Shown: positions 34,866 to 63,859 of the stretch, piece by piece
Layout: each line of letters starts with the position of its first letter
Position numbering within the stretch: the stretch's first letter is position 1
Assembly (NCBI GenBank): GCA_038049695.1
Contig: CP142453.1
Span: forward strand, 115,670,001-115,734,000
DNA: 64,000 nucleotides
Direction of reading: 5' to 3'
From: Cinnamomum chago
Taxonomy: Eukaryota > Streptophyta > Magnoliopsida > Laurales > Lauraceae
Made by a program: the position numbers and the translations under genes
Notes under the pieces: model-generated
Databases searched by the model: none
What the model saw: only the letters and a program-made list of their open reading frames with translations
What the model was told of the DNA's origin: nothing

Positions 34866-34874
34866 TAAGAAGAA

Positions 34875-35720
34875 GAGTTTGGCTATCTACACACTGCAGA
34901 CTACTCTCTACTCACTGCATTTAAAAAAAATAAAAAAAATCCCTAAACTACCCCTTGCCCTCTCTTTCCCTGCTCGTTGCCGTGCTCATTGCCGTCCATC
35001 GCCCACCCACCCTCTCCCTCTTCCTCTCCTTCTCCCTTCTCCCTCTCTCTCCGCCCGGTCACTCTCTCCCCTTCCTCTCTCTCCCTCTCATCGTGGACAA
35101 GCAAATGGAGAAGAAGCAAATGCTTTGGATGTAAAATAAAAAATAAAAATTGCCATTGAAATCGGCTAATCCGATTCATTCGGCGACACAGGGCCGAACA
35201 AATAGAGTTTGTTCGGCCCTGTGTCGCCGAACGAATCGAGTTTGTTCGGCCCTGTATCGCCGAACAAACTTGATTTGTTCAGCCCTGTGTCGCTGAACGA
35301 ATCAAATTCGTTGATTTCAATGGCAATTTTTTTTTTTACATCCACAACATTTGCTTATTCTCAATTTGCTTGTCCACCGTGAGAGGGAGAGAGGAAGGGG
35401 AGAGGGTGATCCGGCGTTGGTCGGCGACGAGCGAGGAGAGGGAAATAGAAAGGGAGAAGGAGAGGAAGAGGAAGAGGGAGAAGGAGAGAGGGTGGGCGAG
35501 CAGCAGGCGACGAGGAGCAGGGTTTACGGTTTAGCAGGGAGAAGAAGGCAATAGAGAGGGAGAAGGAGAGGAGAGGAAGGGGAGAGGGTGGGCGGGCGGT
35601 GGAAGGCAACGAGCAGGGAAAGAGAGGGCAAGGGGTAGTTCAGGGATATTTTTATTTTTATTTTTTATTTTTAAATGCAGTGTGTAGAGAGCAGTTTGTA
35701 GTGTGTAGGTAGCCACTCTC
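34875..35720. mobile_element. Mutator-like foldback MITE, 846 bp
   Basis: Arms of about 400 bp are inverted copies of each other: GGCTATCTACACACTGCA on the left against GGCTACCTACACACTACA on the right (reverse complement), and both contain ACTACCCCTTGCCCTCTC. The flanking 9-mers TAAGAAGAA (34866-34874) and TAAGAATAA (35721-35729) match at 8 of 9, as expected for Mutator-type insertion. The centre holds an array of palindromes (separate entry). No transposase. It ends 251 bp before the zinc-finger start codon. Confidence 0.8.
35179..35298. repeat. Array of 22-bp palindromes, 33-bp period
   Basis: GTTCGGCC-N6-GCCGAAC-type palindromes at 35211-35232, 35244-35265 and 35277-35298, with an inverted-order unit at 35179-35199. 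The spacing is exactly 33 bp. It lies at the symmetry centre of the 34875 foldback. A related pair sits at 58701-58755. Confidence 0.85.
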
Positions 35721-35971
35721 TAAGAATAATGACATCTTAATCAAGGGTGAATGAAGGTGGCCAAGGTCTTTTGCCTAATACAAAGAAGTGGGGGTTCCTT
35801 TCAAAAGTTACAAAGATCTGGGCTGTTTACAGATTGTTGCAAACATCAGGGGTAACTAATATAAAACACAACAACATATGACCCTACTGTTCCCCACTCC
35901 CACTGAATCCAACCCATCTCTTCCCAATCCTCCCTCCCTCCCTCTCCGGTCTCCATTTCCTTCCCTCCTTC
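35721..35971 (+). promoter_or_regulatory. Proximal promoter and 5' leader of the zinc-finger gene
   Basis: The last 90 bases before the ATG at 35972 are pyrimidine-rich (CCTCCCTCCCTCCCTCTCC), like many plant leaders. No TATA box is obvious. The foldback element borders this region directly, so it could affect the promoter. Confidence 0.4.
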
Positions 35972-48900: not shown

Positions 48901-51900
48901 GTAGTGATACGCCTACTCCCCTTCTTTTCTTGAGGGAACCTTACAACATTGAAGTCCCCTCCGATACACCACGGTTCAGGCCATTGATATATCATATCTG
49001 AGATCGAAGACCAAAAATCTTCCCTCTTTCAATCATCATTAGGTCCATAGACATTTGCACCAATCCACAAAAAATCCCCCCCAAAACAACTGAACTTAAT
49101 AGCCAACACCCTTTGAGTTTTGAGACCATCCTCCATCTTCAGGATGTCGTCATTCCAAACTGAAATAAGGCCCCCTAACGCGCCTTCAGCTGGCTCCCAC
49201 TCCCACTTACAACTTCGCGACCCCCAAATCTCCTGAATAACATGATCAACGTCTTTAGAAATCTTTATTTCTTGCAACAAAAGAAGACGAATCTTGTGTT
49301 TCTTTTACCAATTTTCTAATAGATGCCTTATTCTTCAGTTTTCCTTACCCTCTTATATTCCAGCTCACCAAAACCATGATTATCTTCAGATATATGAACA
49401 CCCTTTGCTGGTCTCCTAAATCATGTTGTCCTACCATCGACAGCACCCATAAACAGATTATCAACCCCTTTCTCTATTTCCTGTTGAAGAAAGGGCGACA
49501 TTTTTCTCTTTTTATTTGGAAATTCAAATGGAGACGTCTTTCAAGTCTAATTTTTTGACAGTTAAGTTAATTAACTAGAAGTCATTATTTACATTGTCTT
49601 GTGTATCTTGTAGATTTTATATGTTCGAATGTTTAACAGGGTTAAGGCTTACCATCATAAGAATTATAAATAGCTGAGATCATGTTGAGTTGGGTAGGTT
49701 AGAGAACATACCAAGTTACCCACCCAGTATAAGCGTATGTTTTGATTTAGTTACTGTGTGATTTGATGGGTTCGGCTAAAACTGGATGAGAACAGTTTTA
49801 GACGCTGGGCAATTTGTCCAGATGAGTTAAATGCCTTCTTATTGCCAGTAATAGTAAAATTGCATCTACTAGTTTCGGTTATCCATAGAAATCTTAGAAG
49901 TTACTAGTTCTTGGTTGTTACTATTGTCTTTTTTTTTTATTGGTAACATGACTTGAGTCCACAACTTCAGATTGCAATAGTGAGCACCTTCCACTGTGCC
50001 ACAGGTTCTTGTGCTAGTTCTATTGTCTTATTAATTTTATATTTGGGACATATTTTTTGCTAAGTGATAGTCATGACATTTGTTTTGTTTTTTTGTTTGG
50101 ATGTTTGTTGTTGTTGTTGTTTTTCTATTTTTTTTTTTAATTATCTATTTAAGATCTTACCAGGTGAAAGTTGTATAGACATGTTCTTGTTGTTATCTTA
50201 CCATTTGATGCAAATCCTAGGGTTAGGATTTGGATCATAGTTGCCACAGCACAATGATGGATTTCCCAAGAAATAATCACATGACGAAGACCAGTCTCCA
50301 GCGAGAAACCCCTAAGGGGAAAATTATATTAAACTCAAACTCTTGAGATTATGATCTCTACAATGCCATATAAATAGCAAAAGATACTTAGGGGCTAATA
50401 CTCTTACTCCTAATCAAACTAGGAAACTAAATAGGTGTCACAACCCTGCCCAACTCAGCATGATATTGTCCGATTTGGCCCACATGCGCACGTGAGGACT
50501 TCCCAGGCGGTCGCCCATCTCAGTACTTCTACCGCGTGAGCGCGCTTAACTACAACGTTTTTATGGGATCTGGGATCGCACGGCTTTAAAACGCGCCATG
50601 TTGATTTAATACAGGGTTTGACTTATAAGCCCAGGGTAAGGACTTGGATATTTCCGATGTGGGAATAGCGGAGACTCACCGTTGGAAGCTCGTGGTTGAC
50701 ACTAGAGATGTCACACACCCGGCCCGACCCACCATGGGGCGGGCTGGAGCGGGGCGGGCCAGCATGCCTGTTATTTTTTTTTCCATTTTTTTAGAAATAA
50801 CACTAATACCCAACACAGCCGGCAAGCCTTTCAAAATTATAATCATATAAAAAGACCAATGACTAGCAAGAGGTGTCTAGAAAGGGAGAAGATACCAAAA
50901 GGTACCTTTTCTCTTTTCTGTAAAGGGCCAATTGTAGTAATAGTATTAAATATTTCTGCATCTTCCAGGGAGGTTCCCACAACACTGATGATAGAAAATT
51001 AGAAATCAGGAGCAAGAAACTCCAATAGTGTATCTAATTTTGTCTGATAGACTCCTACACCTAGATTAGATCTCCTTCCATGAGTCAAAGGGCACCACCA
51101 CTGGGCACCAAGAAATAAAATTCAACAAGGTCATCATGATAAAGGTTGAGTCCACTAGTCCTATCACTTGAGGGTCGGGGTTTTACTCGGCTTCTCTTTA
51201 GGTCCGAAGGGATTTGTCCAGCCTGGAGAGTCTCTTAGCAAAAAAAGAAAGAAAAAAAAAAAAACCAAGATCACGAAAAATGTGTGTGCTCAAGCTTGAG
51301 CATGGCCTTTTAGGCAATTTGTCACGATATACACTTCTTATGTAGAAATATTCGAGGGTTAGAGACTTAGAGTAGTATAAATAACACTAATAAATTTAGA
51401 AAAAGAATAGGAGGGTTAGAGTATTATAGATTTTGTAAAACTGAAAAGGGCACAAAATACCCCTTATATGATCGTTTTATGGCTGTTTGGGGGGGGGGGG
51501 GAAATGGACAATTTATTTTAAAAAGTCACTTTTGGGCGGGCCGTGCCTAGCGGGCCACAGAGGGCAGCCCACATGCCTGGCGGGCCCGGGCCCAGCCTCC
51601 ACTGCCGGTTGACTGGCGGGCGCCCGGGCCGGCCCATTTGACATCTCTAGTTGACACGATGTGCCCTATGGTTAAGGGTGCCGCCCAGATTAAGTACTCA
51701 CACTCTCCCCCATCGGAAATAGAGTCATCCTCGGCTTTGATACCAATTGTCATAGCCCCGTCCAACTCAGCATGATATTGATCGCTTTGGTGCACGTGTG
51801 CGCACAAGGACTTCCCAGGCGGTCACACATCCCAATACTGCTCCCATGCGAGCACACTTAACTCCGGAGTTCTTATGGGATCCGGGATGCACGGCTTTAA

Positions 51901-54362
51901 AAAGCGTCATGTTGAGTTAATACGGGGTTTGACTTATAAGCTCACGGTCAGGACTTGGATATTTCCGATGTGGGAATAGCGGAGACTCACCGTTGAAAGC
52001 CCGTGGTTGACGCGCTACACCCCATGGTTAAGGGTGCTGCCCGGACCAAGTCCCTACAATAGGAAATCCTACAGAAATTAAAAATCCTTCCTAGTTACAA
52101 CTCTTCAATTAAAATAGAAACTTAAAAAATAAGAAAATCTCTAGACTTCCATGAGTCCCATATGTGGCCCATGAGTTTGTCTCTCGTGAAATATTGGTGC
52201 TGCTGCATGACCATTGTTACTACGTAACCTATGAGCTATTCTTTTTAAGGCTGGTAATGGGCTGGGCCAGGCGGGCTGGTCTATATGGGTTTCTGGCATA
52301 GTTGTTACCTATTTCTTAAACCAAGAAAACACCATATAAATGTCTGAATTCCATGGATTTATGCTGAAGGTTGATGATTACATTTGCATATGTTATATTT
52401 AGTCACTATCTCAGTAAAACTTGCATAACATTTAGGGCCCGTTTGTTTCATGTATCTGAACTACTAGGAATATTTTGTCTTTAATTTCCTAAAAGTGGTC
52501 CATTGAAGAAACAACGGTGAATATGGACCATTAAAATGATCCCTCCTTGATGGAAAATGAATCAAGAGGAGATAGGAAATTAATACCCAGCCATCACCCT
52601 AGAAATTCAAATCCCCTTGAAAAGCAACGTCTCATCTACATCTCCAGCTTACAGGAAATGAATACCCAACCATGATTGATGAAATTATTGTTGTCAAGCC
52701 CTTATTACCGTCAGGAGACGGGCATACCTCTGTCCATATGATTGCATTGCAACATTTATAGATGTCTTAAAGGACGTTTATTGCTATTGATTGGATCTGT
52801 CTCCTAAATCCTCATAATTTTTCTGTCTCTGAAACTTCAGCATGTTGAAACTGGGTTTTGTCTGTATTTGCAATTTGTTTTATTTATAGTAAAAATTATG
52901 TATATCTTAATGTATTTTTTTTCTTCAGAAATAGCATTTTTTTAATGCAACCACTAATTCTCTTTTAAGAAAATTAAGATATGTCTACATGGAGCAGTTT
53001 GCATGTGGCACCATTGGATTCAGTGGCTGCCATTAATTGGTTTTTTTCTGCATTTTGTACAAGGTTTTTTTTTAGATTCCATTTAGTTTTTTATTGATAG
53101 TGCCTGTCATTTGGCAAACACATGTTACTCTTCTATCTTTTTAAGTTCTTAATGATAATTTTGGAGCTGTTCTGTAGGCTGGCAGACCTTCATACAGGAG
53201 GGGGGGCAGAAGAGGTGGTGGGCCATACTGGGGTGGGGGCAGATTTGGCTACTGGCCCCCAGCAAGACCAGATGGTGGTTTCCCTTTCCGAGGAAGAGGA
53301 CGCATGGCTAGGGGTGGCGGGCGGCGGTTTCCACCGCATGCTACAGCTGCAGCTGCAGCTGCATCATCAACATCACAGCACCCAGGACCTATATCTGCTG
53401 TTGAACAATCGTCACCATCACTCCCAGCACCAGCTGCAGCACCTGCTTCAAAACCGTCTAAGGCACCACGACAACCTCCCCAGGTCTTCTGGTGTGAGAT
53501 CTGTATGGTTGAATGCAACACCCTGGAAATCCTCGAGCAGCACAAAAATGGAAAACGACATAAGAAAACCTTGCAGAGATACGAAGAGCTGCAGAAGTTG
53601 AAAAAAGCCCAGTCTGAATCACAAGTGGCTACAGTGCAACCTGAGAATATTCATGGGATTGATGAGAACAAGACTGCCTTGGAGCCAAAGGATTCTGCCC
53701 TGGAAAGCTCTCTTGCTGTAGCTGGTATGGATGAAAACAAAATGGATATCCAACAACAAAACCAGACAGCAGAACAACCTGAGGTTGCAAATGTGGACTC
53801 TACTGAAGCACCAGGAAGGAAGCGGGCGATGGAAAGCTGGGGGTACCCTCCAAAGCAGAAGAGGAAGTTTGGACGGGGTGGGAAGCATTTGAGACTGTCA
53901 GAAGCGGCACACAACTCAGAGGCTCCCAAGGAGCAGCTGTCTAGGTACTGTGCTTTGTGTAATGTTACGTGCGATACCCAGGCTGTGTTTGAAGTTCATT
54001 TGGCAGGTAAAAAGCATACATCTCGGGCTAAACGGTTTCCAGTCCCACAAGGTGGTTATGGGGCCATGGGCCCACACTCTTTTTACATGCCTCATGTCCA
54101 AGGAATGAGCTTCAATCCTCAAGGGCCAGCAGCTGGCAACAATGGGAATCATCAAGCTCAACAAGCAGTTTTGGGGACCCAAGTTCAATATGGGCTAGAA
54201 TATCAAGGGCAAGAAATTACTCCAAGACCTGAGGGGACAGCTGTGACAGTTGCAACCCAATATAATCCAGTCCCAACATGGGAAAACCCAATTTCAGGAG
54301 TGGGGTATGTTCCAGAATATGGAGTATCCTATGCTGATACTGTTGTCTTACCGGGGCCTTGA
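35972..54362 (+). CDS. U1-type C2H2 zinc-finger protein with Q-rich/RGG regions, two exons
   Basis: Exon 1 is 35972-36340 (123 codons, donor AAT|GTAAGG); exon 2 is 53178-54362 (acceptor TTCTGTAG, stop at 54360-54362). Both are phase 0, giving 517 residues. The N-terminus has a Gln run and Tyr/Pro/Gln-rich low-complexity sequence. Exon 2 opens with an RGG-like stretch (YRRGGRRGGGPYWGGGRFG) and an Ala run. Two matching zinc fingers of form C-x2-C-x12-H-x5-H follow: C229, C232, H245, H251 and C381, C384, H397, H403. This spacing is that of U1/zf-met/jaz fingers, which bind RNA, often double-stranded. A basic KQKRK segment between them may be a nuclear signal. The C-terminus is Gly/Gln/Tyr-rich. 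I infer a nuclear RNA-binding role; no precise orthologue is named. The intron is about 16.8 kb and full of transposons. A small internal exon could be missed, but the direct join keeps frame. The leader is pyrimidine-rich. Confidence 0.85.
37589..37945. mobile_element. Inverted-repeat MITE-like element, about 357 bp
   Basis: The left arm (GAGAAATCATGAGTTCAAGG ... CCTATTGAAATCTGAACGG) pairs with the reverse complement of the right arm (GAGAAATCCCAACTTAAAAG ... CCTATTGAAATCTGAACCG). Arms are about 75 bp. Superfamily not determined; no clear target duplication. Confidence 0.7.
39878..39904. repeat. (AG)n microsatellite
   Basis: 27 bases of uninterrupted AG in the zinc-finger gene intron. Confidence 0.95.
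40532..41005 (+). mobile_element. Solo LTR, 474 bp (fossil)
   Basis: Begins TGATGCAGGCCC, ends GGTGCCTCA, and is flanked by CCACT at 40527-40531 and 41006-41010. It has an AATAAAGA polyadenylation-type motif near 40781. Same family as the reverse copy at 20126-20611. No internal domain, so it is a solo LTR; exact target repeats suggest moderate age. Confidence 0.85.
45143..49497 (-). mobile_element. L1-type LINE, 4.36 kb, 5'-truncated before ORF2
   Basis: Flanked by a perfect 20-bp target duplication at 45123-45142 and 49498-49517. Minus-strand order: endonuclease (about 49377-48600, starting MVLVSWNIRG, then LLLQEIK, GALGGLISVWND, ANVYGPNDD, RLDRFLISKEW, SDHCLVMI); reverse transcriptase (about 48460-46900, with YKLLSKILANRLKRVLP, HQRAFIHKRQILDNILIANE, FKYLGLPLG); zinc-binding RVT region (about 46346-46050, PPRMKAFCWLAV, CCLCRREIETIDHLFLHC); RNase H (about 45690-45600, LKFNVYGAEKGKPGLAGIG). 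The tail is AATAAAATTCCTTTGTTACC plus an A-rich end. There are many stops and frameshifts, with the first stop right after MVLVSWNIRG. It has no intact ORF1, so it is dead. It sits in the zinc-finger gene intron, antisense to it. Confidence 0.92.
49931..50019 (-). mobile_element. tRNA-like SINE, family B, with 10-bp target duplication
   Basis: Flanked by CTATTGTCTT at 49921-49930 and 50020-50029. On the minus strand: ACAAGAACCTGTGGCACAGT, GGAAGGTGCTC, a degenerate B box, CATGTTACCAATA, then an A tail. Only about 89 bp long, with no body beyond the tRNA-like part. Confidence 0.8.
50703..51649. mobile_element. Nonautonomous hAT element, 947 bp
   Basis: Terminal inverted repeats TAGAGATGTCACACACCCGG and, on the other end, TAGAGATGTCAAATGGGCCG. 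Flanked by a perfect 8-bp duplication GTTGACAC (50695-50702 and 51650-51657), the hAT size. The ends are GGCCCGGCCC-rich. It holds a 13-base G run at 51489-51501 and a SINE at about 51143. No transposase was seen. It is inserted in the 3' LTR of Cassandra. Confidence 0.9.
51143..51265 (+). mobile_element. SINE family A, 5'-truncated, inside the hAT element
   Basis: GGGGTTTTACTCGGCTTCTC, then GGGATTTGTCCAGCC and CTCTTAGC plus an interrupted A tract: the shared tail of family A. The upstream half is weakly similar. Imperfect CAAGGTCA / CAAGATCA flanks may be the target duplication. Innermost layer of the nest. Confidence 0.7.
52434..52690. mobile_element. Tourist-like MITE, right end missing
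   Basis: GGGCCCGTTTGTTTCATGTA matches the left end of the 9247 MITE, and CCTAAAAGTGG follows as it does there. No complementary right end was found within 500 bp, so the end coordinate is approximate. Confidence 0.5.
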
Positions 54363-59240: not shown

Positions 59241-59262
59241 GTGGAGTGAAATTGTACTTAAA

Positions 59263-59589
59263 GGTCTGTTTGGATAGGCAAAAAGTAGAGTAGAGTGAAG
59301 TTAAATGGGCTATAACAGTCTAAAATTTCAACTTTACCCCGTTTAGATGAGTCTGACCCTATAGATGAAGTAATGTTATGAGCCACATGTACTCCATTTC
59401 ACTTCAACTCTAAATACTTCCATTTTCTTGAGTAAAAATGGATTATATTCCAAACCTTAACTTCAAAATAAGCATCCAAATGGAGTGAAGGGAAGTACTA
59501 TACTTTAACTTCAACCTACTTATCTTCACTCCACTTCATATATGAAATCCACTTCATTTCACTTCACTCCTCATTTATCCAAACAGGCC
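59263..59589. mobile_element. MITE, 327 bp
   Basis: Left GGTCTGTTTGGATAGGCAAA and right, reverse-complemented, GGCCTGTTTGGATAAATGAG, then AGTGAAGT in both arms. Rich in ACTTCA/TGAAGT words internally. No clear target duplication, superfamily undecided. Confidence 0.7.
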
Positions 59590-59771
59590 AGGGAATTATT
59601 TTGTTGGGTTCGAAACACCTTTTTGATGTTGATTCACGTACACTGTCCTTTGAAGCTGTGGTTTTGTCTAATGGTGAATGACACTCATCAAAGGCAATGG
59701 GTGATTTCAATACATGGTTTCTTCCGCAAGCTATATTTTAGAAAGTCAACGGAAAGAGGATCCCAATCCTT

Positions 59772-60835
59772 GGGCACGTTTGGCAACGATCCACACAGTG
59801 GAATCCTCGCCTATTTTCTTCACGATCGCAGAAAATCCACTGTTGGTAACAAATTTGACCATATGAGGTGATTTCTCAAAATACCTCAATAATCCTCGCA
59901 AGCAACGAATTTGCCAGTCGGACCACTCCCACTGAAATTCCGCAAATCCGCGCGTTAGCAGAAACGCGGATGAACAATGCAAATGAAGCTAACTATGGGG
60001 TTATCCATTTTTTGTTTGAAAACCTACGTTTGGGTCCCATACTGACAAACCAAACTGTTCATTACATTAAAACGATAAATAATGGCTATTTAATGAAGTT
60101 TCAGCCGTTGATGTTTTGTAAATTGTCAGATATTTGTAAAACACTTCAAAACGTTGGATCATAAGATCTGGATTTTTGTGGGCCATATATGTGCAATCGG
60201 AACCGTCCAGTTTGTTAAGAAGGCATAAAACGGCCATGGGGTGAAATATGGAATCATAATTCATCATAGACAGTGAGAAAAATGTAAAAAATGTAATGAC
60301 CATAGATCACCCCAAAATGTAACGTTTTCTGACAGTTTCAAGAGCACACACAGGTGGTAATAGACTGGAAACTTTATGGGCTTTGGAAACTTATGTTATG
60401 GGGCCCAAAATAACGATCCGAACCCTCCATCATTTTTAGAAAATTCAAAACGGCCAGTATACCAATTTTCAACCGTTGATTCGTTATACTAATTGAGATA
60501 TTGACAAAACTGTCCACAACTTAAAAAATAAAATTTAAAATTTGTGGGACCCACAATGAAAATCTAAACCATCCATCATCTCTGAAAGGCATGATTTGGC
60601 ATGGGGTTCAAATTTTAGGATCTGATTCATGGCGGATTACGAGAAAAAGGCAAAAAAAATTGTAACCTTTGGATGTAATATATACAAATCCATAATTCTC
60701 CATTATTTACAAAGCATGGATCGCCGTGGATTTTCTTTCTAAGAAATTCCACATGGAGGAGTTCATAGTATAAGAAGAGTTTAGCAATCCTCTGGATAGA
60801 TCCAGAGGATTCCATTCTTGTTACCAAACGTACCC
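59772..60835. mobile_element. MITE-like element with internal direct repeats, 1.06 kb
   Basis: Ends GGGCACGTTTGGCAACGATC and, reverse-complemented, GGGTACGTTTGGTAACAAGA, both followed by TGGAATCC. Four internal imperfect units start near 60031, 60178, 60398 and 60544, each with a GTGGGNCC-like block, an AACCNTCC block and an AAAACGGCCA-type block. No coding sense. Confidence 0.7.
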
Positions 60836-60839
60836 TAAA

Positions 60840-61263
60840 CAAGTCCAAAGCGGATTGGGCTTGGGCCGGCCCGGCCCATACGATGAGATCGCTGCCTATG
60901 TTTCCGCCAGTCTTCCCTTCCTGTTTGGGCACCTTACTTGTAGAGTCAAGTAAGGTGAAACCCCATTCTAAAAAAAAAAATCCCACCAAAAGCACTTTAC
61001 ATTAAATTTCCCACCAGATTTTTTCCAAAAAAATAAAAAAAGTAACCTCATTTACTCACTAAAATACAAAAAAACTCCACTTTTTAATAAAAGAAGTCAA
61101 CTAAAAATAACTAAAAATAAAATACCAATATTATTTATTTATATTTTATTATTTCTTCAAAATAACCTCACTCAACTCTACACCAAACAGGTTTGTAGTT
61201 AGGAGTTAGGGCAAGACACAGCAGGACAGATTCACTAAAGTGAAACGGAAACTGCCCTAGCTG
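60840..61263. other. Intergenic, A-rich
   Basis: A-rich DNA with no gene seen; it may form the 5' flank of the unrecognised frame at 61433. Confidence 0.4.
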
Positions 61264-61291
61264 CTCAATCCTCAATCCTCAATCCTCAATC
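61264..61291. repeat. Heptamer tandem repeat (CTCAATC)4
   Basis: Four exact copies, 23 bp before the left arm of the long inverted repeat. Confidence 0.9.
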
Positions 61292-61313
61292 CTTTTCGGT
61301 CCCCTCCATGTTA

Positions 61314-61516
61314 GATCATCTTATCCCCAATCATCAATGTAAGAAAAAATGCTATCCAGTAGAGTAGAAAGCCAAGAAGGCGTTGCAGAGGAGTCATCTG
61401 AAGCTAGGGAAGGATTCGATTGAGAGCTTCAGATGACTCCTCTGCAACGCCTTCTTGGCTTTCTACTCTACTGGATAGCATTTTTTCTTACATTGATGAT
61501 TGGGGATAAAATGATC
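61314..61516. repeat. Near-perfect inverted repeat, 92-bp arms, 19-bp loop
   Basis: Arms 61314-61405 and 61425-61516 differ at one position by my alignment; the spacer is 61406-61424. The right arm lies in the reading frame that starts at 61433, encoding most of the first hydrophobic segment, so the left arm is an inverted copy of coding-like DNA. A transcript would fold into a long hairpin. It is unlike the TIR elements nearby, having no target duplication and a very short loop. Confidence 0.95.
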
Positions 61517-62175
61517 TATCTGGTGCCGTTTATTGTTTGTGGGATCATTCGAAATAATCTTGATATGAGCCAGTTGATTCCCTTCCCAAGCCCCCACCCA
61601 CATACTTGAATACACGATCGTCCTTGATTCCCTTGCTAAGCCCCCACCCATACTGGAATGCCACAATCGTCCACCCTGTTTTTCTTAATAGCTCACCACC
61701 TCCATCATCACTGACACCACCTCCATTGCAGTGGGCTCATATAGAGACCATAGGCAAGAATTCCATTCACAAGGTATGGGGATTTATCTGTGCCTGTGTG
61801 TATTACACTGGTGAGGTTGGGGCAAATCTGCATTATGTTCTGGAGTACGCAAAAAAAATGGTGAAGTGGATTAAAGACGCTGATGACATCCGAAAGTTTG
61901 TAATAAACACTCCGTGGCTGATGAATTTTGGTGCAGCAGTATGGGGTTTTATTATGAACAGACAAAGAACCATTGTATGGTTGGTTTTTCTTGCCTTCAT
62001 GCTCATATCGGTATCCTCGGGTGATTTTCCATGATGTTTTTGTCCATGCTTCCAGGTTTAAACTTTAACCAAAATTTTAAATTTAGAGATGCTACAAGAT
62101 TTTATTTTTATTTGAACGTTTCATTTTCTCTTTTGCAGGGATCAATTCTCTGCCGAGATCAGTAGTGGATTTAGC
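61433..62175 (+). pseudogene. Unrecognised membrane-protein reading frame, probably disrupted
   Basis: From an ATG at 61433 a 58-codon frame encodes hydrophobic segments (LLGFLLYWIAFFLTLMIG, then YLVPFIVCGII) and stops at 61607-61609. A second open frame from about 61606 to 62034 encodes a Pro/Ser-rich part, then a segment with WGFICACVYYTGEVGANLHY, and a hydrophobic C-terminus (TIVWLVFLAFMLIS). The frames meet at two imperfect copies of a roughly 50-bp tandem duplication (about 61573-61624 and 61623-61672); a single unit would place both parts in one frame. A possible donor at 62010 and acceptor at 62158 would add a short last exon ending within about 20 bases. I do not recognise the family. 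It could be a recently broken small membrane-protein gene, or coding-like chance. The start of this frame is also one arm of the 61314-61516 inverted repeat. Confidence 0.35.
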
Positions 62176-62179
62176 GAAG

Positions 62180-62767
62180 TAGAAGTAAGTATATTTTTAC
62201 TTTGCCTAAAAGGGAAAAACCCAAAAAGCATGAATCATTGTAGGCTTTGTTGTGTGCTAATCATGTGTTAACCAAACATTTATATCAATGGATTGAACCT
62301 CATTAAACTTTTAACGCTTCTTTTTTCAATTTTTTTGCTTGAGAGGCTGTTAAATCAAGAGACGGACAAACCTTTGGAGTTAGTACAATGGCATCTTGAA
62401 CAAGGTCAAACCATGGCAATTGTGGTTGATAGAGCATTTTAGTGTAAAAAATGAATGCCCAGGCACACAATCCATTCCTGCCCAAAGAAAAAATTGGGGA
62501 CTGGACCATTGATGGGTATTGGGACCTTATACGGAAAAGAATCATCTGATTCATTGAAATTTTAGGGGCAGACAAATGAACTCATCAACCACCTCTGCAT
62601 AATAAATGGCCTAATACTCTCATGTAAAAAAAAAAAAACACGCACGTCACACCAAAACCCATCATCAAATAGATGATTATTGCCTCAATAAAAAATAAAA
62701 CCACCTAAAGCACCACCCTCACAAGTCAGCTTGTCTGTGGCTGTACATAAGTGTAAAATGCATCAAA
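62180..62767. other. Between-gene or intronic DNA, nothing assigned
   Basis: No domain in the 90-codon minus-strand frame at 62303-62575. If the Kelch exon belongs to a gene starting further left, this would be intron. Confidence 0.4.
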
Positions 62768-63235
62768 TCAGATGGCAGCGGGCTTCTTAGACTCCTCTGA
62801 CATATTGGCAGGAGGAAGTAGCGCAGTGGCCCGACGGTCAGGACTCGAATATTTTCTGTATACCACCTTCAGTTTACTCTGTGCTGCAGATGAATGGAAG
62901 CTCAACAACAGCTTCAGAGAAATCCTTAATCTGGGTCTCAGTGAACTGTGTGGTGCCTGAGCGTTTTACCATGTCTTCCATCTCTTGGTCTGACTTAGCT
63001 GCCTTGAGACACCGCACAAGGAAAACATATGGCTTGGGAGCTGTTAAGCTCCATTCAAGCTCATTCAGAATGCTCTTCTCCTTTCTTAGTATCCCTTCTC
63101 TAGTGTATGTCATGTCTGTTATGCAGATGAAGTCATTGATCTCTGGTCCCTAAATTTCTTCATATTTGCTAGCAATGAGCATGGCACTGACACCCACCTA
63201 CTGTTGCATCCTCATATGCTCAGGCAATTTTCTGT
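62768..63235 (-). pseudogene. Cyclin B C-terminal pseudogene (processed-like)
   Basis: Reading the minus strand from about 63210, the translation follows the cyclin B C-terminal cyclin fold: VGVSAMLIASKYEEI, INDFICITDMTYTREGIL, NELEWSLTAPKPYVFLVRCL, SDQEMEDMV, then after a gap FTETQIKD, and finally LKVVYRKYSSPDRRATALLP up to a TGA at 62768-62770. A stop interrupts the frame after KYEEI. About 40 codons are missing between DMV and TETQIKD. A one-base shift separates TETQIKD from the C-terminal tail. Normal plant CYCB genes have several introns across this span and none is seen, so I infer a reverse-transcribed copy, although no clear poly(A) tail or target duplication was found. The parent gene is not in the window. 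It lies antisense to the presumed intron upstream of the Kelch exon. Confidence 0.8.
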
Positions 63236-63566
63236 CATATGATGTGGCTGTTTCTGAAAAACCCAAGTCATTTTTGGGTCCAGTGTTGTGCTCACTGCTA
63301 CTTCAGGTCTTGTACCTTTCGTGACCGTGCTCCTAAAGAAACTGATTCCACTCTACGGAAGTGTATCTTAAAACACTGGAATTTTGTTCTCCCAGAGCAT
63401 AGGAGAACAAAGTCTCCTACCGTAAAACACAAGGTCTCCTATGGTAAAGACACCTACCTCCTCCCACTTACATATATGCACAAGCACCGCACACACGCAC
63501 GACTTCTATATTAATACCTTTAAAAAAAAAGGTTAGTTCTGTGTTGAGTCTTGTCAATCTTTGCAG

Positions 63567-63638
63567 CATGGAGCAGCAATCGTCCAAGAAAAAATGTACA
63601 TTTTTGGTGGAAATCACAATGGTCGTTACCTTAATGAC
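63567..63638 (+). CDS. Single Kelch-repeat exon, probably ACBP4/5-like (partial gene)
   Basis: A 72-bp, 24-codon exon with acceptor TTTGCAG at 63560-63566 and donor GTATGT from 63639. It reads HGAAIVQEKMYIFGGNHNGR followed by YLND. This is a Kelch beta-propeller blade (hydrophobic strand, diglycine, then an aromatic residue). The wording closely resembles the first Kelch blade of plant acyl-CoA-binding proteins ACBP4/ACBP5, from memory of that family. Those proteins carry an N-terminal ACB domain and bind acyl-CoA in the cytosol. I found no ACB domain upstream in this window, and the following exons would lie past the right edge. It may be an interior exon with a long upstream intron, or an orphan gene fragment. 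Confidence 0.5.
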
Positions 63639-63859
63639 GTATGTTGTCTTATAACTTATTTTAATTATAATATCTTTAAATATTTTATACACTATATCTT
63701 TTTAATTGCTATATCATACAACCATATTTCAGGAGTAATTTTATTTTAAAAAATATTTTCAGATATAAAGTTTATGTTAGTTTAAACTGTTAGATTTATG
63801 TTCTCCACTTCTTTGTCCTATGATATTATTCAGTATGTGTATGTGTATAAGTATGAATG

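What the first reader, a model, noticed from the sequence alone, without database searches (positions are those of the whole stretch)
61314..61516. Young inverted duplication of a coding segment: candidate hairpin-RNA or proto-MIRNA locus
Two 92-bp arms differ at only one base and are separated by 19 bp. One arm sits inside a readable hydrophobic reading frame (start 61433). The near-identity means the event is recent. Inverted duplication of a gene piece is the proposed birth route of plant MIRNA genes (established model). Transcription through it, from a promoter for the downstream frame, would give a long perfect hairpin able to feed DCL proteins and silence the family that donated the arm. 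Function is inference.
Basis: partly seen in the sequence, partly recalled or inferred. Interest (0 to 1): 0.7.

Follow-up and report, generated by a model that had tools for sequence, protein, structure and literature searches.

The report
Young hairpin from duplicated gene fragment
In what looks like a plant chromosome, a short piece of a decaying gene was recently copied back to front just in front of itself, making a near-perfect hairpin, and another copy of that gene 46 kb away has a larger hairpin of its own; whether either makes silencing RNA is untested.

Summary
The inverted repeat is real: 94-nt arms (61312-61405, 61425-61518), one mismatch, 19-nt spacer, far beyond shuffled sequence. 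It is not a high-copy element: the whole-assembly search found the arm at three places, its two arms and one paralog 68 kb away. That paralog, copy D, carries the right arm once, in place, so the left arm is a reverse-complement copy set into the 5' leader. Both arms share six of seven sites that differ from D; at the seventh the left arm keeps D's base. This fits a real, recent event and speaks against an assembly artefact.

The source is a decayed gene family, four copies found within 71 kb. Copy C carries an independent inverted duplication (897-nt arms, 99%) with the same antisense-first layout. Template switching is the best origin. By exact 21-mers, A's hairpin could reach D, and C's could reach A and B. 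No transcript or small-RNA data were available: silencing is unproven, and decayed duplicates collecting replication errors is the likelier reading.

The parts
61312..61405 (-). Left arm: reverse-complement (antisense) copy of the exon-1-like segment, in the 5' leader
   Evidence: 94 nt, 99% complementary to the right arm; D matches it only in inverted orientation, at D's single copy; keeps D's base at the only arm mismatch
61425..61518 (+). Right arm: native copy (end of leader plus start of the exon-1-like frame)
   Evidence: Colinear with paralog D over 61412-61569, 92% identity
61406..61424 (+). 19-nt spacer, chimeric: 61402-61418 is the reverse complement of a unit of D's leader tandem repeat; the rest is native leader
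   Evidence: Exact 17-nt match at C3:115799894-115799910
61298..61311 (+). Short tract at the outer junction with no recognised origin
   Evidence: A 13-nt pattern from it has no other match with up to 1 mismatch in the 164-kb region
61433..61609 (+). 58-aa hydrophobic remnant frame starting inside the right arm
   Evidence: D has a 124-aa frame; 67-nt length difference
61564..62034 (+). 156-aa stop-to-stop frame (exon-2-like) of the same decayed gene; relatives in copies B and C
60837..60925 (+). Promoter-like upstream block that aligns in copies A, B, C and D (limits approximate)
   Evidence: alignment; GGCCCA is present in A, B and D but reads GGCCCT in C; taking GGCCCA as a plant site II-type element is recalled
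60926..61182 (.). High-copy MITE-like insertion between the upstream block and the hairpin
   Evidence: 2749 first-look candidates, 40 scored: the window itself and 39 other places at 88-91% identity; absent from D (sequence printed)
59254..61710 (+). Segment with an inverted duplicate at C3:115799444-115801761 (copy D), in several blocks
   Evidence: 92 of 1661 aligned bases differ over 59254-60918

Best explanation
This is a recent local inverted duplication inside one member (copy A) of a small, decaying, locally spread gene family. Most likely a replication fork switched template onto the opposite or nascent strand and copied about 107 nt of exon 1 and leader repeat backwards into the 5' leader, where D has about 200 nt of tandem repeat instead. 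The result puts an antisense piece between the family's upstream promoter-like block and the sense piece, so a transcript from that block would fold into a long, nearly perfect hairpin that also buries the start codon at 61433. A second, independent inverted duplication with the same layout exists in copy C. Shown: the sequence, the layout, that the arms are closer to each other than to D, the second case. Inferred: template switching, and that A's ancestor looked like D. Not shown: transcription, dicing, any silencing.
For: Arm found at 3 places in the assembly. D carries a single arm in native context. Of 7 sites where an arm differs from D, 6 are shared by both arms; at the seventh (61510) the left arm equals D. 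The inverted tract is chimeric, with a leader-repeat piece joined at AGCT and TCG (joints read by eye). Copy C: 897-nt arms, 99%, plus a nested 43-nt perfect pair at its centre, set into exon 1 at a short ATTGG match (by eye). In the 164-kb region the repeats of A and C are the only inverted repeats less than 5 kb apart with arms of 90 nt or more at 98% or better (A's arms; one search reports A as one 207-nt palindrome at 92.8%, spacer included); none of that class in 5 control stretches of 10 kb. That template switching creates reverse-complement repeats and RNA hairpins is published (PMC8794818; abstract and passages seen).
Against: Template switching was not observed; break repair or foldback priming could leave the same footprint. 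The chimeric spacer needs a second switch or a later deletion. The outer joint has about 14 nt of unknown origin. Only D is close enough to polarise the change. The two whole-region alignments do not align the replaced stretch well, so its size rests on the BLAST blocks. Gene conversion between arms could make the event look younger. A's history is mosaic: it is 76% identical to B over 61415-62207 but 87-98% over 62232-63204, which this account does not explain.
Confidence: 0.82

Rival explanations
1. Working hairpin-RNA or proto-MIRNA locus: the locus is transcribed from the shared upstream block, the hairpin is diced by DCL proteins into 21-24-nt RNAs, and these reduce transcripts of the family, mainly copy D.
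For: 94-bp near-perfect stem; a 37-nt stretch identical between the arms and D was found nowhere else in the assembly within 3 mismatches; 17 of 166 distinct 21-mers of the arms (both strands) match D exactly; upstream block aligns in all four copies. Birth of MIRNA loci from inverted duplications of coding genes, with the donor promoter in the case of MIR163, is published (PMC1790633, 12 passages seen), and pseudogene-related miRNA genes are reported to arise mainly by inverted duplication (PMC3237417, abstract and one section read).
Against: No expression or small-RNA data. No Rfam match at the locus. The family is decayed and small. A MITE-like insertion separates the upstream block from the hairpin. 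The only clear target is D, itself truncated.
Confidence: 0.2
2. Neutral by-product: a pseudogene cluster that collects inverted duplications because nothing selects against them. (This concerns function; it is compatible with the origin given as best explanation.)
For: Stops or frameshifts in B and C, frame truncation in A, no exon-2 part in D; no intact relative found elsewhere in the assembly by capped searches.
Against: Two near-perfect events in one four-copy family with the same antisense-first layout is suggestive, though the first was the starting point of the search and only 50 kb of arbitrary control was available.
Confidence: 0.6
3. Palindromic transposable element (MITE or foldback element).
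For: Palindromes that look like such elements exist in this genome: control L045:4904-5030, 127 nt in all, 95% self-complementary.
Against: Arm found at 3 places only; the right arm runs on into gene sequence shared with D; no target-site duplication seen at the ends (by eye).
Confidence: 0.02
4. Assembly artefact (foldback chimaera).
For: No reads were available to check.
Against: The left arm keeps D's base at the one mismatch; the insert is chimeric with leader-repeat sequence; leader sequence shared with D resumes upstream at 61226-61279.
Confidence: 0.03

Closest known systems
Recently evolved plant MIRNA loci born by inverted duplication of coding genes (e.g. Arabidopsis MIR161, MIR163; PMC1790633, 12 passages seen)
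   Same: Two arms similar to a coding-type gene family; a promoter-like block of the gene of origin stands upstream, as reported there for MIR163
   Different: Arms still 99% paired; that paper notes DCL1 acts poorly on perfect dsRNA, so a siRNA-type hairpin is closer. No small RNA known here; the donor family is decayed
Gene-cluster inverted repeats that silence relatives in trans (soybean CHS I locus, PMC3804491, start of abstract in a listing; Arabidopsis Cvi VIM4-VIM2, PMC13213937, abstract read)
   Same: Inverted copies inside a local gene cluster with relatives close enough to be targets
   Different: There siRNAs and effects are shown; here A's arms are only 94 nt and nothing is known of expression
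Template-switch mutations creating RNA hairpins (PMC8794818, abstract and passages seen)
   Same: Reverse-complement copy beside its source, with the state before it inferred from a relative
   Different: The passages seen treat mammalian microRNAs and rRNA genes (word 'plant' 0 times); here a 94-bp stem in a probable plant gene family

Membership tests
Plant MIRNA gene (inverted-duplication class) | Foldback whose arms match a gene family along their length | tested here: met
   Arms 99% to each other, 92-93% to copy D over 92 nt
Plant MIRNA gene (inverted-duplication class) | Precise miRNA/miRNA* excision, DCL1 dependence | not testable with these tools
   No small-RNA reads
Known RNA family (Rfam 15) | Match at the gathering score | tested here: not met
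   Two hits in the window, both 5S rRNA and elsewhere; a young locus would not be expected to match
siRNA-producing hairpin (hpRNA) locus | Long near-perfect inverted repeat able to fold as one transcript | tested here: met
   A. C: (repeat only, not folded)
siRNA-producing hairpin (hpRNA) locus | Transcript across both arms and 21-24-nt siRNAs | not testable with these tools
   No RNA data
Template-switch mutation | Reverse-complement copy next to its source, with a relative lacking it | tested here: met
   Copy D
Template-switch mutation | Short matches at the joints | tested here: inconclusive
   AGCT and TCG at inner joints of A, ATTGG in C, read by eye; the outer joint of A has about 14 nt of unknown origin
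MITE / foldback transposon | Many dispersed copies | tested here: not met
   3 places found in 1.06 Gb: the two arms and D (that search skips very common words)
MITE / foldback transposon | Target-site duplication | tested here: inconclusive
   None seen by eye at the ends
TMEM43 (PF07787) as the donor gene family | Score above the Pfam cut-off | tested here: not met
   15.7 bits against 23.3, 15.3; nothing in the assembly at E<=1, but no control genome rang either

The most novel reading that the evidence does not exclude
Within one 71-kb cluster two of four decayed copies independently turned into antisense-first hairpins with complementary reach: by exact 21-mers A's hairpin matches D (17) but not B or C, and C's matches B (62) and A outside its hairpin (16) but not D. 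Together they could silence the whole family: a self-silencing pseudogene cluster caught at birth, both hairpins made by template switching near the 5' end of the gene.
Probability: 0.1. Interest if true: 0.65.

Novelty: new member of a known kind. Interest (0 to 1): 0.4.

Why it matters
In the inverted-duplication model of MIRNA birth, many known cases have diverged from their source. Here a relative without the event, the joints and a parallel case in the same family can be read side by side, so the first step (the mutation) can be separated from the later one (recruitment by DCL proteins). Small-RNA data from this species would show directly whether brand-new hairpins are diced and whether relatives feel it.

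Tried and rejected
Rejected: MITE or foldback element (3 places found); TMEM43 as parent gene (below cut-off); an intact parent elsewhere (protein searches find only the C3 cluster plus one weak C4 hit at E 0.44; DNA search with C's arm finds only the cluster; all these searches score only the best candidates); Rfam family.

Led nowhere: paper search (33 papers, 12 listed, none judged relevant from title and abstract start), joining template switching, MIRNA, inverted duplication and plant, gave 2 papers, judged unrelated in the same way, for template-switch-born microRNAs, gave 21 papers, 8 listed, of which only PMC8794818 looked relevant. I recall a later paper on de novo miRNAs from template switching; it did not appear in these listings. 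One search listed PMC2708354 on small RNAs from rice pseudogenes, not opened.

A wider background count of palindromes was not possible: 5 control stretches of 10 kb at positions I picked and six 3.3-kb loci brought in by a repeat search were scanned. Against a claim of rarity: one of the 5 stretches holds a 127-nt palindrome at 95%, one an array with inverted matches at 82-88% (and a 32-nt palindrome at 94%), and one of the six loci a palindrome of about 107 nt at 87% with a 33-nt core at 97%.

Full report
What is there. The inverted repeat has 94-nt arms (61312-61405, 61425-61518), one mismatch and a 19-nt spacer. In 50 dinucleotide shuffles of the surrounding 6 kb the longest exact inverted arm with its partner within 500 bp was 9-14 nt; the real one is 85. 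The RNA form of 61300-61530 folds at -175.6 kcal/mol, z -24.6, 0 of 200 shuffles as good. The window lies on contig C3 of an unnamed 1.06-Gb assembly with 14 contigs. That it is a flowering plant is my inference from size and content.

Where the arm comes from. Searching the assembly with the right arm gave three places: the two arms and C3:115799717-115799808. The last belongs to copy D, an inverted duplicate, in blocks, of window 59254-61710: 92 of 1661 aligned bases differ over 59254-60918, 12 of 158 over 61412-61569. Copy D has the exon-1-like segment once, colinear with the right arm. Between the blocks that match 61226-61279 and 61412-61569, D has about 200 nt of imperfect tandem repeat; in the window copy (A) the left arm stands there instead. 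So the right arm is native and the left arm is the copy. Of 7 sites in the 92 aligned bases where an arm differs from D, 6 are shared by both arms; at 61510 the left arm has D's base and the right arm does not. By parsimony the duplication came after most of the A-D divergence of this segment, and one base has changed since. Between the arms 1 of 94 sites differs, against 5.5% between A and D; with one difference the uncertainty is large, and gene conversion between arms could hide age.

How it was made. The inverted tract does not stop at the arm: 61402-61418 is the exact reverse complement of a unit of D's leader repeat, joined at AGCT on one side and at TCG on the other (by eye). The outer end (61298-61311) has no recognised source in the 164-kb region. 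A chimeric, inverted, locally templated insert in place of other sequence is what replication template switching leaves; the mechanism is inferred. It is reported to create RNA hairpins in other genomes (PMC8794818, abstract and passages seen).

The family. Protein searches of the assembly found relatives only within C3:115731314-115799800, apart from one weak hit on C4 (E 0.44); a DNA search with C's arm found only the cluster. These searches score only the best candidates. Alignment within the joined 164-kb region shows four copies: A (window, +), B (115771779-115773876, +), C (115777586 to about 115779720, -) and D (-). An upstream promoter-like block aligns in all four; its GGCCCA motif is in A, B and D, while C reads GGCCCT. 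None looks intact: B and C have stops or frameshifts, D lacks the exon-2 part, and A's first frame is cut to 58 aa against D's 124. No frame of the family reached a Pfam cut-off; the only hint, TMEM43 at 15.7 bits against 23.3, is not accepted. A's history is mosaic: 76% identity to B over 61415-62207 but 87-98% over 62232-63204. I cannot explain that.

A second hairpin. Copy C holds arms of 897 nt, 99% complementary, 254 nt apart, with a nested 43-nt perfect pair; 9 of 897 bases differ. In gene orientation I read the order as upstream block, start of exon 1, antisense body, centre with the rest of exon 1, sense body. This is the layout of A, at a different place and with a different insert, so I take the two events as independent. 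In 164 kb these two are the only inverted repeats less than 5 kb apart with arms of at least 90 nt at 98% or better (one search gives A as one 207-nt palindrome at 92.8% because the spacer is included). Five control stretches of 10 kb had none of that class, though one had a 127-nt palindrome at 95% and one an array with inverted matches at 82-88%; one of six further 3.3-kb loci had a palindrome of about 107 nt at 87%. Since the first case was given, the second falling in the same family (about 5% of the region by my estimate) is suggestive, not strong.

What it may do. If transcribed from the upstream block, A would give a hairpin that also covers its own start codon. Of 166 distinct 21-mers of A's arms (both strands), 17 match D exactly (57 with up to 2 mismatches), 0 match B (3 with up to 2) and 0 match C (0 with up to 2). 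Of 2030 from C's arms, 62 match B, 16 match A at 61519-62300 and 0 match D exactly (over set stretches of each copy). A 37-nt core shared by A's arms and D was found nowhere else in the assembly within 3 mismatches. This makes silencing possible, not shown. Against it: no RNA data, a decayed family, and a high-copy MITE-like insertion between the upstream block and the hairpin in A. I put a working small-RNA role at about 0.2 and a neutral by-product at about 0.6.

Comparison. It resembles MIRNA birth by inverted duplication (PMC1790633, 12 passages seen; PMC3237417, abstract and one section read) and gene-cluster inverted repeats that silence in trans (PMC13213937, abstract read; PMC3804491, start of abstract in a listing). 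A hairpin-derived siRNA acting in a pollen drive system is a further case of what such loci can do (PMC11390486, abstract read). Structural features are met; all small-RNA features are untested, so it is not filed as a MIRNA gene.

Noticed in passing
L025:3586-5633 (C3:115777586-115779633): Copy C of the same family: 897-nt inverted duplication at 99%, with a nested 43-nt perfect pair; potential very long hairpin and the best small-RNA candidate of the cluster.
   Followed up: yes
window 62232-63204 and C3:115772650-115773876: A and copy B are 87-98% identical here but only 76% over the gene part 61415-62207: mosaic history, unexplained.
   Followed up: no
window 60926-61182: MITE-like insertion; 2749 first-look candidates in the assembly, 40 scored (the window itself and 39 others at 88-91%).
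   Followed up: partly
window 60500-60838: Dispersed repeat inside the A/D duplicated segment (131 first-look candidates, 40 scored; apart from the window itself and D at 93%, 69-89% identity).
   Followed up: partly
window 50484-50597 and 51800-51906 (-): Two 5S rRNA Rfam hits just above cut-off (38.4 and 39.8 against 38 bits); possibly 5S-derived SINEs or decayed 5S copies.
   Followed up: no
window 62877-63149 (-): Cyclin_N fragment (E 1e-6, above cut-off) in a tail shared with copy B and in parts with places on C1, C3 (31.4 Mb), C4 and C5; looks like a cyclin pseudogene piece.
   Followed up: no
window 63537-63746: Kelch-repeat frame (Kelch_1, above cut-off), probably an exon of a gene running off the window.
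   Followed up: no
window 34874-35721: Large nested quasi-palindrome with a 33-bp tandem repeat inside; looks like a foldback element.
   Followed up: no
L004:5822-6037: Copy D's leader is an imperfect tandem repeat carrying two ATGGCTCT start-like sites (sequence), apparently duplications of the exon-1 start seen in B and C.
   Followed up: partly
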